Source: Coriobacteriia bacterium (lineage in GTDB: Bacteria > Actinomycetota > Coriobacteriia > Coriobacteriales > UBA8131). Taken from it: DNA of 64,000 nucleotides. The notes below the pieces were generated by a model, which had not been told where the DNA came from, searched no databases, and saw only the letters and a list, made by a program, of their open reading frames with translations. Both the position numbers and the translations under genes were made by a program. Shown here in pieces: positions 7,582 to 11,698 of this stretch (position 1 is its first letter; each line of letters opens with the position of its first letter). The DNA lies in contig WRHU01000006.1 in assembly GCA_009783085.1 (NCBI GenBank), forward strand, positions 1 through 64,000. Reading direction: 5' to 3'.

Positions 7582-8811
7582 TCAAAGCTTTTTTGCAATG
7601 CGGTCGAGTATCTGACGAGCAAGCTCACGTTTGGTAATAACCTCCGAAGTTTCGGTTTTCTCGGCATCAACAAAAAGCACTTGGTTGTAGTCGCTGGCAA
7701 AACCAAGCCCGGGCTTAGACACGTCGTTGCCAATAACGAGGTCAGCGTTTTTGCTTACCAGCTTTGCTTGTGCCGCAGCCTCAACATCTTCAGTTTCGGC
7801 AGCAAAACCAACAACATAGACGGGCTTACCGCTTGCCGTTTGTGCCTTGTTTGCCGCCAAGGTGGCAAGAATATCGGGGTTGGGAGTAAGCTCAAGCGTT
7901 GTGGGAGCATCGGCGGCAACATCACGACCCTTTTTTATCTTGCTCACCGCAGGGTCAGTAGGCCTAAAGTCAGAAACCGCGGCCGTAAAAATGGCAGCTT
8001 GAGCTTCACCAAACACAGGGGTAGCCGCCTCGAGCATCTCAGCGGCGGTTTGAACACGCTTTACCGTAACGTCAAAGGGGTCGGGCAGGGTAACGGGGCC
8101 AGTAACAAGCGTAACCTCTGCTCCCCTACGTGCTGCCTCTCCTGCAATAAGAAAGCCTGTCAATCCACTTGAGGGCGAGGAAATAAAACGCACGGGGTCT
8201 AAGGGCTCACGTGTAGGGCCTGCAGTAACGAGCATTTTTACCCCCTCAAAATCACGCGCTCTGCCAAGCTCGCCCATAATTGCCTCAACAATAGTATCAA
8301 CCGAGGCAAGCCGCCCTTCTCCCTCGTCACCGCAAGCAAGAATACCGCACTCTGGCTCGATAATCTCAATACCCCGTGCTTGCAAAGCCGCCAAAGAAGC
8401 CTGCGTGGGCTCAGCACGCCACATCTGCGTGTTCATTGCGGGAGCTACTATCAAAGGAGCGGTAGCGGCAAGGGCCGTGGTAGTGAGCAAATCGTCAGCC
8501 ACACCATTTGCTAGTTTATTTAGCACATTTGCGGTGCAGGGTGCAATGCAAAACACGTCTGCTTCTTGCGCCAAAGAAATATGATGAATAGGAGCGCCCG
8601 GTTCGTCAAAAAGCGGACAGGCAACCGGCTCATTGGTAAGAGCCTTAAAGGTTGCCGCACCAACAAACTCGGTGGCGTGCTCGGTCATAACAACCTTAAC
8701 CCGAGCGCCTTGTTTTTGAAGCCCACGCACTATCTCGCACGCTTTGTAGGCGGCAATTCCGCCGGTTATGCCTAATAGTACCGTAGGCTCAAAGGTTTTA
8801 GCTGCGTTCAT
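7582..8811 (-). CDS. coaBC: Phosphopantothenoylcysteine decarboxylase / phosphopantothenate-cysteine ligase
   Basis: This bifunctional enzyme of coenzyme A synthesis joins cysteine to 4'-phosphopantothenate and decarboxylates the product to 4'-phosphopantetheine. The N-terminal flavin domain shows GITGGIAAYKACEIV, the His in PIHHISLAQEAD, and APAMNTQMW. The C-terminal ligase domain starts at about residue 195 with VTAGPTREPLDPVRFISSPSSG and continues to a Lys-rich loop near residue 300. The length of 409 residues is normal. I choose the ATG at 8811 because AGGAG precedes it and it lies nine bases after the upstream stop codon; longer frames overlap the upstream gene. It appears to be co-transcribed with the RNase H-QueD gene. 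Confidence 0.95.
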   Translation of the reverse strand: MNAAKTFEPTVLLGITGGIAAYKACEIVRGLQKQGARVKVVMTEHATEFVGAATFKALTNEPVACPLFDEPGAPIHHISLAQEADVFCIAPCTANVLNKLANGVADDLLTTTALAATAPLIVAPAMNTQMWRAEPTQASLAALQARGIEIIEPECGILACGDEGEGRLASVDTIVEAIMGELGRARDFEGVKMLVTAGPTREPLDPVRFISSPSSGLTGFLIAGEAARRGAEVTLVTGPVTLPDPFDVTVKRVQTAAEMLEAATPVFGEAQAAIFTAAVSDFRPTDPAVSKIKKGRDVAADAPTTLELTPNPDILATLAANKAQTASGKPVYVVGFAAETEDVEAAAQAKLVSKNADLVIGNDVSKPGLGFASDYNQVLFVDAEKTETSEVITKRELARQILDRIAKKL

Positions 8812-8819
8812 AAGAACTC

Positions 8820-9767
8820 CTAGTCGCGTGTGTAACTTAAGCGGGCAATGGGCGACTCCCACACCGCAACCTCTTTGAGGTCGATGTGAGCGGGCAAGCC
8901 GGGTTCAAGCTGCTCAAATATCACTCGTGCCAAGTTCTCAGCCGTTGCGTTTAGTTCATTAAACGGCGGAATATCATTGAGAAACTTATGGTCAAAGGTG
9001 TCCAAAATGGCCTTGAGCGCACTTTTGATGTCCTTAAAATCATAGACAATCCCCACCTCGTCAAGCTGCGTACCGCACACGCTCACCTCTATATCCCAAG
9101 TGTGCCCGTGCAGGTTTTTGCACTCCCCCGGATACCCAACAAGCGCATGAGCCGCATCAAAATGGTCTTTTACCGTAAGCGTATACATAGGTGTACCTTT
9201 CTCTTTTGCCTGGCGAGCAGCAGGAGCAACGCCCTCATTTGTTTTTGTTTCTCTTGGCATGGCTGAGGAGCTAGAGCTTATCTCATCAAAAAGCGTACCC
9301 GACAAATACGGAACACAATAATCCCCTACCTGTTCACGAGTGTCCATCGCCTCATTCGCAAGGGCGTCGGCAGCAGCGTTCTCCTCGCGCAAAACATGGT
9401 TTACTGTGTAAGACTCAAACGCTCCGAGCAGGGCACGGGCTTGTGCATAAAGCGGCTTAATGCCTTCGTTTTTAACTTTGTATTCACCGTTGAGCTGCTT
9501 GATCACAAGCTCGCTATCAGCGTAAACGTCGATAATTTTCACGTCCGACTCAAGCGCATTACGTAAGCCCCAGATAAGCGCCTGATATTCCGCGTGATTA
9601 TTGGTCGCAACGCCAATATAGGCTCCCCCCGAACACAGGGGCACAAGTTGGTCGCCGTCGGCGGCAGCAAGCGCAAAGCCAATCCCGCTGATGCCAGGAT
9701 TGCCCCGAGAACCACCGTCGGTGTTAAGCACCGCTCGATGAGGTTTTATAGCTTTGGTATTGCTCAT
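8820..9767 (-). CDS. RNase HI fused to 6-carboxytetrahydropterin synthase (QueD)
   Basis: One 315-residue protein carries two unrelated enzymes. Residues about 8-145 are an RNase H domain: NTDGGSRGNPG, NNHAEYQAL, YADSELVIKQL and ENAAADALANEA supply the acidic catalytic residues. A Ser/Glu/Lys-rich linker follows. Residues about 200-315 are a 6-pyruvoyl-tetrahydropterin synthase family domain: FDAAHAL and LHGHTW give the zinc histidines, Cys in GECKNLHGH is the catalytic thiol, and DHKFLND follows. QueD makes 6-carboxy-tetrahydropterin for queuosine; RNase H removes RNA from RNA-DNA hybrids. No other que gene is in the window. The ATG at 9767 has AAAGGA ten bases upstream. The second domain starts with a Met that could allow separate translation. 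Confidence 0.9.
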   Translation of the reverse strand: MSNTKAIKPHRAVLNTDGGSRGNPGISGIGFALAAADGDQLVPLCSGGAYIGVATNNHAEYQALIWGLRNALESDVKIIDVYADSELVIKQLNGEYKVKNEGIKPLYAQARALLGAFESYTVNHVLREENAAADALANEAMDTREQVGDYCVPYLSGTLFDEISSSSSAMPRETKTNEGVAPAARQAKEKGTPMYTLTVKDHFDAAHALVGYPGECKNLHGHTWDIEVSVCGTQLDEVGIVYDFKDIKSALKAILDTFDHKFLNDIPPFNELNATAENLARVIFEQLEPGLPAHIDLKEVAVWESPIARLSYTRD

Positions 9768-9900: not shown

Positions 9901-10617
9901 TTAGCGCTTCGTCACTAGCAAGCGGTGACAATGCGGACACTCTGCGAGCTCTCCACTACTTTTTAGCTGCATAAGTTGGCCCTCGGCATACGGCATTCTA
10001 CACGCACTACAGTGGTCATCCTCAATGTAGGCAGCGCCAATGCCGCCCTTTGCCACCACGGCTTTTTCGTAGCGCTTGAGCAAAGAGTCCGAGAGGTGCG
10101 TTGCACGTTTTTCACGCAAAGTTGTTTCATGCAGTACGGCGTTTTGAAGCTCGGAGCCATTCTTTTTGAAATCCTCAACCGTTTCTGCTTCTTGCTCTTG
10201 GAGCCTTACGAGCGCAGCTTTTGCCTGCACAATAATCTCGTTTATCTTATCAAGTTTTTCCATCTGCTTGAGCGTTTCAAACTCGATTTTCTCAATTTTT
10301 TTGACCGCTGCCTCAAGCTCTCGGGTAAGCGCACCCGTTTCTTTATAATCAGAGCTTTCGTCAATCTTGCTTTGCGTTTCTTTGCGATGCGCTATAGCTC
10401 GCTCCTCATCGTCCTGCAAAAGACGTATGGTGTTCTCGTTTTCTGCACGCAAGCTACCTACCTGTTCAATTTTTTCCTCAACCTCACGCTGCTTGTGCCG
10501 CAGGTCAAGTATTTTGGCACGCTGAGGTAGCTCGTCAAGCTGCTTTTTAAGCTGCCGGAGCTTGAAGTCGCTTTCTTGTAAGGCCAGCAAAAACTCAGCT
10601 TCGCTTGGAGTAGTCAC
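9901..10617 (-). CDS. Coiled-coil protein with C-terminal C4 zinc ribbon
   Basis: This 238-residue protein belongs to a widespread family with a long antiparallel coiled coil (about 1-180) and a C-terminal zinc ribbon formed by CSACRMPYAEG and ECPHCHRLL. The family often neighbours Nif3-like genes, as it does here, and is thought to bind nucleic acid or act as a tether; its exact role is not established. I favour the GTG at 10617 as start because GGAGG lies eight bases before it; an ATG 15 bases upstream (10632) has no Shine-Dalgarno. A duplicated initiation region lies just upstream. Confidence 0.8.
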   Translation of the reverse strand: MTTPSEAEFLLALQESDFKLRQLKKQLDELPQRAKILDLRHKQREVEEKIEQVGSLRAENENTIRLLQDDEERAIAHRKETQSKIDESSDYKETGALTRELEAAVKKIEKIEFETLKQMEKLDKINEIIVQAKAALVRLQEQEAETVEDFKKNGSELQNAVLHETTLREKRATHLSDSLLKRYEKAVVAKGGIGAAYIEDDHCSACRMPYAEGQLMQLKSSGELAECPHCHRLLVTKR

Positions 10618-10708
10618 AACTCTGTCCTCCATGGTTGCTTGTGGTTTCTTGCGCTTTTAGCTATCCTGTCCGCTCTGCTCATCACAACTCTGTCCTCCAC
10701 GGTTGCCA
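10614..10708 (-). repeat. 68-bp offset duplication of a translation start region
   Basis: The sequence TGGAGGACAGAGTTGTGA occurs twice, 68 bases apart, at the end of the Nif3-like gene and at the start of the zinc-ribbon gene. The copies create a 22-codon mini-frame (10682 to 10614) whose ATG overlaps the Nif3 stop codon. Its own last codons repeat the Nif3 C-terminus (QPWRTEL), and its TGA overlaps the GTG start of the zinc-ribbon gene. Confidence 0.7.
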
Positions 10709-11698
10709 CCAAGAAACCAGTGGCTCGATGATAAAAATACGTTCCTGCGCTATTTTTTGCTTGAGCAAAGCGTCACGCAGATAAAAACGATACGGAAGCT
10801 CCGAGCGGTCATGCCCGAGTTCTATAAGCGCCACGCCCGCCGCTGCAAGTTCCAACGCTTCATGATAGCGCACTTCGCCCGTTACGTAGCAGCTTGCGCC
10901 ACTTGCAATAACCCGACGCACCAGTTCGCCACCGCCACCGGAACACGTTGCCAACACCTCTATGGGCATATCCTCATCGCCCCACACACGAGCAACCGCT
11001 CCAAAAACCTCCTCGTAGCGCTGGGCGAGTTCTTTAAGCGTAGGCGTTTGGGGTTGGGCTGGGGCTGGAGATTTCGCTTTGCACGGCACACCCAACTGTC
11101 CCAAACCAGCAACGGGTTTACTTGCGCCAGAGCCACTGCGCACTAAGTTCCATTTGGCACGAGCACTCTTCTTTGCGTCTGCTGCATCTGCCAGTTCAGA
11201 AAGTTCCCGACCAAGCTCGGCTGGATAGGCAAGCGGAGCACGGTATTCATATCCCACCGGCTCAAGCAGCATGCCTGCCGCAGCCGGCGCACAGTCAAGA
11301 TTGGTGTGCATGCCGATAAGCGCCACACCTTGTTCTGCCGCACGATAGACGGCAGCAGCTTCGGCAGAACCTGCTGGTGAGCAAGCACTCGCCTCACGCA
11401 AAAACACCGAGGGCGCGTTCCAAAACACCGGGTGATGCGTTACCAAAACATTGCAGCCATACGTCGCAGCTACTTCTATGGCATCTACCGAAGCATCAAG
11501 CGCAAGGGCAATAGAGCCAACCTGCGCATGTGCTTCTCCCACCAGCAGACCAATACGATCGTCTTCTAGGGCGTCGGTAGCGGGAAACGCTGCAAACAAA
11601 AGTTGCTCAAGCTCACGAACCGTAAGCTCTGCATTTTTGCTATTGGATTTTTTTTGAGAACTGCGGATAGAAGTAACATTGTTTGTGCGGGCACTCAT
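10682..11698 (-). CDS. Nif3-like dinuclear metal centre hexameric protein
   Basis: This 338-residue protein is of the Nif3/YbgI (DUF34) family. The metal ligands are visible in VTHHPVFW (near residue 85), GMHTNLD (near 132) and, toward the C-terminus, LGHDRSELPYR. A Pro/Ala/Lys-rich insert (residues about 185-225) separates the two halves. The family has been linked to GTP cyclohydrolase-like folds, but no reaction is certain. The ATG has GGAG six bases before it, and a TGGTATAAT extended -10 stands about 30 bases upstream. Its stop is joined to the zinc-ribbon gene through a small duplication, so the two are likely one operon. Confidence 0.9.
   Translation of the reverse strand: MSARTNNVTSIRSSQKKSNSKNAELTVRELEQLLFAAFPATDALEDDRIGLLVGEAHAQVGSIALALDASVDAIEVAATYGCNVLVTHHPVFWNAPSVFLREASACSPAGSAEAAAVYRAAEQGVALIGMHTNLDCAPAAAGMLLEPVGYEYRAPLAYPAELGRELSELADAADAKKSARAKWNLVRSGSGASKPVAGLGQLGVPCKAKSPAPAQPQTPTLKELAQRYEEVFGAVARVWGDEDMPIEVLATCSGGGGELVRRVIASGASCYVTGEVRYHEALELAAAGVALIELGHDRSELPYRFYLRDALLKQKIAQERIFIIEPLVSWWQPWRTEL

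What the first reader, a model, noticed from the sequence alone, without database searches (positions are those of the whole stretch)
8820..9767. RNase HI fused to the queuosine enzyme QueD
One frame encodes a complete RNase H and a complete 6-carboxytetrahydropterin synthase, joined by a Ser/Glu-rich linker. Both have their catalytic residues. I know of no shared pathway for RNA-DNA hybrid removal and tRNA queuosine synthesis. It may be an accident of fusion that stuck, or a real link between tRNA-related work and RNA handling.
Basis: partly seen in the sequence, partly recalled or inferred. Interest (0 to 1): 0.6.

Follow-up and report, generated by a model that had tools for sequence, protein, structure and literature searches.

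The report
RNase H fused to a pterin enzyme
A gut actinobacterium encodes one protein that joins an enzyme that clears RNA from DNA to a pterin-making enzyme; the join is real and common in its class, probably arose by merging neighbouring genes, and the pterin half more likely serves folate (vitamin B9) synthesis than the tRNA modification its name suggests.

Summary
The fusion is real. On the minus strand, window 8820-9767 encodes 315 aa: an RNase HI domain closest to mycobacterial Rv2228c, a disordered linker, and a PTPS/QueD-family domain, all catalytic residues present. It is not a sequencing error: 36 distinct fused proteins occur across Coriobacteriia, 33 with both active sites intact. 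Deeper relatives carry the two genes separately and adjacent in a nif3-cdsZ-rnh-ptps operon, so fusion came from neighbouring genes. The closest precedent is mycobacterial RNase HI-CobC. The queuosine reading is not supported: QueC and QueE are absent, TGT is present. Instead FolE, FolP and FolK are present, FolB is absent, and this is the only PTPS. In 151 genomes of the order FolB and PTPS never co-occur (35 FolB-only, 108 PTPS-only). Where a second PTPS with the folate-capable CExxHGH motif exists, the fused PTPS is dead in three of four genomes. So the PTPS half probably bypasses FolB, although its CxxxHGH motif is the QueD type and E. coli QueD does not do this. Each domain can die, be deleted or split off alone, so they act largely independently. 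Many members, including this one, keep an internal ribosome site and ATG before the PTPS.

The parts
8820..9767 (-). fused gene: RNase HI, linker, PTPS (QueD-like); 315 aa, ATG 9767-9765, stop TAG 8822-8820
9318..9737 (-). RNase HI domain, residues 11-150 (D17, E60, D84, H124, D134), Rv2228c type
9294..9299 (-). LF dipeptide (residues 157-158) at the end of the RNase H part, conserved in split and fused relatives; clamp-binding-like QxxLF in several
9189..9317 (-). 43-residue linker, mostly disordered, hypervariable in relatives (30-228 aa)
9186..9200 (-). internal SD-like AAAGG (9200-9196) and in-frame ATG (9188-9186) just before the PTPS domain
8823..9188 (-). PTPS domain, residues 194-315 (H207, C216, H220, H222, D259, H260, E304; motif CKNLHGH = CxxxHGH)
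9901..10632 (-). cdsZ-like zinc-ribbon protein, upstream neighbour
10682..11698 (-). Nif3-family protein, upstream neighbour
7582..8811 (-). coaBC, downstream neighbour; likely ATG 8811-8809, SD TAGGAG overlaps the PTPS stop

Best explanation
This is a genuine, lineage-conserved bifunctional protein made by fusing two neighbouring genes of a conserved nif3-cdsZ-rnhA-ptps operon in Coriobacteriia. The N-terminal domain works as an ordinary RNase HI, cutting RNA in RNA-DNA hybrids (inferred from fold and residues). The C-terminal PTPS domain acts on dihydroneopterin triphosphate made by FolE. It most probably supplies 6-hydroxymethyl-dihydropterin to FolK, so bypassing the missing FolB, rather than making queuosine precursor. 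The tether itself probably does little: the domains are catalytically independent and the fusion persisted because it was harmless or kept the two co-expressed. An internal start may also give some free PTPS. Shown by computation: the fusion, its spread, separate adjacent relatives, intact sites, gene presence and absence, and independent loss of each domain. Inferred: the folate role, the RNase H role and the neutrality of the join.
For: Fusion in 36 distinct proteins, 33 with every catalytic residue in both domains. Separate adjacent genes in deep Coriobacteriia, in the same nif3-cdsZ context, with a tree that favours a split ancestor. FolE, FolP and FolK present, FolB absent, a single PTPS. 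QueC and QueE absent. FolB versus PTPS in 151 genomes: 0 both, 35 FolB only, 108 PTPS only, 8 neither. PTPS of the fused locus dead only where a CExxHGH PTPS is present. Domains lost separately: RNase H deleted in G069, G073 and G108, dead in L142, unlinked in G025. Linker 30-228 aa and hypervariable. The mycobacterial analogue was shown to be functionally dissociated (PMC7466739).
Against: The PTPS active site is the PTPS-I/QueD type (CxxxHGH, never Glu after Cys in this family). PTPS-III folate enzymes are defined by ExxHGH (PMC5041015), and E. coli PTPS/QueD did not make 6-hydroxymethyl-dihydropterin (PMC2229834). FolB-less organisms may use an enzyme unknown to me. FolB presence is clustered (one family plus one genus), so the anticorrelation rests on few independent events. 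One genome (G073) has both PTPS types intact. Double-dead fusions apparently kept under purifying selection hint that the fused protein has a role beyond two independent enzymes.
Confidence: 0.6

Rival explanations
1. The PTPS domain is a true QueD making 6-carboxytetrahydropterin, feeding queuosine or another 7-deazapurine through partner enzymes not recognised here.
For: CxxxHGH motif and the QueD equivalog TIGR03367 above cut-off; TGT present.
Against: No QueC in G000 or most fused genomes while G093 gives 5.8e-57; no QueE beyond weak radical-SAM hits; a published survey found queuosine made by almost no Actinobacteria (PMC6593275); perfect exclusion with FolB is unexplained.
Confidence: 0.15
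2. The fusion is functional as a unit: the PTPS fold oligomerises and displays several RNase H domains, or couples pterin state to hybrid removal, so the architecture is kept even when active sites die.
For: Fused proteins with dead PTPS (L159) or with both domains dead (L122, L123) keep the frame and the recognisable domains; L122 and L123 differ most at third codon positions (0.62-0.66 versus 0.32-0.43). PTPS enzymes are hexamers (own knowledge).
Against: RNase H deleted, split or unlinked in several lineages with PTPS intact; very variable linkers; the mycobacterial counterpart showed almost no functional coupling in vivo (PMC7466739). Few dead members are known.
Confidence: 0.15
3. Two products are made: full-length fusion and free PTPS from the internal start, so the gene is effectively still two cistrons.
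For: ATG within 30 codons of PTPS in 26 of 36; SD energy at these ATGs -4.8 versus -1.8 kcal/mol at ATGs inside domains (p about 4e-8); window ATG 9188 with AAAGG.
Against: 10 of 36 members have no internal ATG (three of these have GTG with strong SD); no proteomics. Compatible with the best explanation rather than exclusive.
Confidence: 0.4
4. Sequencing or assembly artefact joining neighbouring genes.
For: Adjacent separate genes in relatives make such an error conceivable.
Against: Dozens of independent assemblies and an isolate genome carry the one-frame fusion with linkers of different length.
Confidence: 0.01

Closest known systems
Mycobacterial RNase HI-CobC fusion (Rv2228c / MSMEG_4305; NCBIfam PRK07238)
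   Same: N-terminal RNase HI is the best PDB and NCBIfam match; variable linker; C-terminal cofactor-pathway enzyme; that mycobacteria have the same nif3-zinc ribbon-RNase H gene order is from my own knowledge, not tested.
   Different: C-terminal partner is PTPS, not CobC; Coriobacteriia, where the cited paper reports no homologs; folate rather than cobalamin inferred.
QueD / PTPS-I, 6-carboxytetrahydropterin synthase (TIGR03367)
   Same: CxxxHGH motif, all catalytic residues, fold.
   Different: Fused to RNase H; no QueC or QueE in the genome.
PTPS-III and PTPS-I/III, FolB-bypass enzymes of folate synthesis
   Same: Genome context: FolE, FolP, FolK without FolB, single PTPS; replaced by CExxHGH paralogs in sister genomes.
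   Different: Lacks the defining Glu of ExxHGH.

Membership tests
RNase HI | RNase H fold with DEDD catalytic carboxylates | tested here: met
   D17, E60, D84, D134; Pfam RVT_3 6e-24; 3hst TM-score 0.90 by target
RNase H-CobC bifunctional family (PRK07238) | C-terminal CobC/acid phosphatase domain and score over cut-off | tested here: not met
   131.9 bits versus cut-off 326, only the RNase H part matched
QueD / PTPS-I | CxxxHGH motif and Zn/catalytic residues | tested here: met
   CKNLHGH, H207, D259, H260, E304; TIGR03367 106 bits over 89.25
QueD / PTPS-I | queuosine/preQ0 pathway partners QueE and QueC in the genome | tested here: not met
QueD / PTPS-I | forms 6-carboxytetrahydropterin | not testable with these tools
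   needs an assay
PTPS-III (FolB bypass) | ExxHGH motif | tested here: not met
   Lys at that position here; never Glu in the family
PTPS-III (FolB bypass) | folate pathway present with FolB missing | tested here: met
PTPS-III (FolB bypass) | makes 6-hydroxymethyl-dihydropterin / rescues folB deletion | not testable with these tools
   needs an assay

The most novel reading that the evidence does not exclude
A PTPS with a pure QueD-type active site (CxxxHGH, no Glu) has taken over the FolB step of folate synthesis across a class of bacteria while fused to RNase HI, and the fused protein has gained a non-catalytic role that is kept under selection even after both active sites die.
Probability: 0.2. 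Interest if true: 0.7.

Novelty: new variant of a known kind. Interest (0 to 1): 0.5.

Why it matters
It shows that two actinobacterial lineages tacked different cofactor enzymes onto the same type of RNase HI, giving a natural series (separate, split, fused, one domain dead, both dead, one deleted) for asking when a gene fusion is neutral. It also points to a misannotation: a protein that databases would call a queuosine enzyme sits in genomes without that pathway and is probably the missing folate enzyme of many Coriobacteriia. That would mean the PTPS signature motif rule for telling folate from queuosine enzymes is incomplete, which a simple complementation test can decide.

Tried and rejected
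Chance or frameshift artefact: rejected. Queuosine role: looked for QueC, QueE and TGT; only TGT found. PTPS-III by motif: rejected. A general RNase HI-PTPS pairing, suggested by an rnhA gene directly after family-B PTPS in G093 and G044: found directly adjacent in no other of about 50 loci examined, apart from a partial rnhA match about 1.5 kb away in G144, so treated as incidental. Phage origin: phage hits listed match the PTPS half only, at most 46% of the query. A search for a published RNase H-QueD fusion found none in the held library. PTPS tree: groups poorly resolved, not used.

Full report
WHAT IS THERE. The frame lies on the minus strand, ATG 9767 to stop 8820, 315 aa. Pfam finds an RNase H domain and a PTPS domain. 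NCBIfam gives the mycobacterial 'bifunctional RNase H/acid phosphatase' model as the best match for the first half, essentially over its RNase H part, and QueD TIGR03367 above cut-off for the second. The best solved structure for the first half is Rv2228c. AlphaFold2 shows two confident domains and a disordered linker at residues 158-190; Foldseek gives 3hst and QueD/PTPS entries. Neighbours on the same strand are nif3 and cdsZ upstream and coaBC downstream; the likely coaBC ATG (8811) has its ribosome site overlapping the PTPS stop.

HOW WIDE. One scan of genome contigs returned the fusion in 16 loci of Coriobacteriia, including the isolate Raoultibacter timonensis. In 151 genomes of the order, most genomes of the window's own family carry it in one open frame. 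From all loci I collected 36 distinct fused proteins; 33 keep all catalytic residues of both domains; linkers run from 30 to 228 aa.

ORIGIN. In seven deep-branching loci (L024-L030) the two are separate, adjacent genes in the same nif3-cdsZ setting, 1-17 bases apart and out of frame with each other. In L012, L016, L017 and L068 they are separate but in frame, divided by one stop codon and a short spacer. A tree of both domains favours a split root, and parsimony needs several fusions or fissions whatever the weights. L072 and L073 look like secondary splits inside the fused clade. This fits fusion by loss of a stop codon between neighbours, in one or several steps.

INTERNAL START. 26 of 36 fused genes keep an ATG within 30 codons of the PTPS domain. 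Those ATGs have much stronger Shine-Dalgarno pairing than ATGs inside the domains (mean -4.8 versus -1.8 kcal/mol, Mann-Whitney p about 4e-8) and than other codons of the same stretch. In the window it is AAAGG-7 nt-ATG at 9188, -4.6 kcal/mol against -5.4 at the gene's start. The other ten have no ATG there, although three of them (L014, L015, L018) have a GTG with strong pairing. A free PTPS product is therefore possible here but not general.

WHICH PATHWAY. In the window's genome (91% complete) QueC is absent: the best hits are 19 bits, against 5.8e-57 in G093. QueE gives only generic radical-SAM matches. TGT is present, which fits salvage of queuine or preQ1. A published survey reports that queuosine is not made by most Actinobacteria (PMC6593275). 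FolE, FolP and FolK lie together on C2, FolB is missing, and the fused PTPS is the only PTPS. Across the same 151 genomes, FolB occurs in 35 (33 of one family, 2 of one genus) and PTPS in 108, never together; 8 have neither, 6 of them quite incomplete. FolK is in 143. So PTPS and FolB replace each other. Genomes without the RNase H-linked PTPS have a different, standalone PTPS with CENLHGH, the PTPS-I/III signature that can serve folate; in seven genomes it sits beside queC.

NATURAL EXPERIMENTS. In G093, G044 and G008 both kinds occur and the fused PTPS has lost its Cys and HxH; only G073 keeps both intact. PTPS intact or dead against second PTPS absent or present: 35/1 and 0/3, Fisher p 4e-4, about two independent events. 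Conversely, in G069, G073 and G108 the RNase H part is missing and, where read (G069, G073), a linker remnant and an intact PTPS follow cdsZ directly. In L142 the RNase H site is dead and PTPS intact. In G025 the two are intact and unlinked. The domains are thus lost and kept separately, as expected for independent functions. In G093 and G044 both domains are dead, yet the frame persists, and the two differ by 0.39/0.34/0.62 (RNase H) and 0.43/0.32/0.66 (PTPS) at codon positions 1/2/3. This suggests purifying selection after loss of PTPS catalysis; two sequences are not enough to settle it.

THE CATCH. By motif this PTPS is PTPS-I (CxxxHGH) and never has the Glu of PTPS-III. E. coli PTPS (QueD) did not make the folate intermediate (PMC2229834). 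Either this family reached the FolB bypass by another route, or it makes something else and FolB is replaced by an unknown enzyme. I prefer the first because of the strict exclusion with FolB and the decay when the CExxHGH enzyme is present, but it is an inference.

KNOWN OR NEW. RNase HI fused to a cofactor enzyme is known from mycobacteria, where the domains were found to be functionally dissociated and the fusion was judged to be fixed by drift (PMC7466739). That paper found the family only in Actinomycetales, so a Coriobacteriia fusion with PTPS is a new variant. No paper in the held library describes it; absence there is not proof.

Noticed in passing
L202:1115-2758 (G000:C2, folate cluster); also L096: FolK is fused in one frame to the 16S rRNA methyltransferase RsmI with a Ser/Pro/Lys-rich linker; a second fusion of unlike neighbours in this genome, seen also in G099.
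   Followed up: partly
window 9294-9299; L025, L027, L068, L122, L123, L199: A short LF motif ends the RNase H part in split and fused forms (24 of 36 fused have LF in the first 20 linker residues, none in 1592 later positions). Several read QxxLF (QGTLF, QVSLF, QDTLF), like beta-clamp-binding motifs, and it survives in the double-dead proteins.
   Followed up: partly
L120:1489-2364, L114:1042-1917: In G093 and G044 a canonical rnhA follows the family-B PTPS gene directly, in just the two genomes whose fused RNase H-PTPS is dead in both domains.
   Followed up: partly
L122:862-1779, L123:1471-2361: Full-length RNase H-PTPS proteins with both active sites destroyed but the frame and domains kept; possible pseudoenzyme.
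   Followed up: partly
L167, L168, L169, L172, L173, L174, L176: Family-B PTPS (CENLHGH) next to queC, so some members of the order do seem to make queuosine de novo.
   Followed up: partly
window 8809-8822: The mechanical ORF for coaBC starts at GTG 8862 inside the PTPS gene; the real start is probably ATG 8811.
   Followed up: yes
L199 and L200 (G025): In one family member RNase H stands alone on one contig and PTPS-coaBC on another; the pair has come apart.
   Followed up: yes
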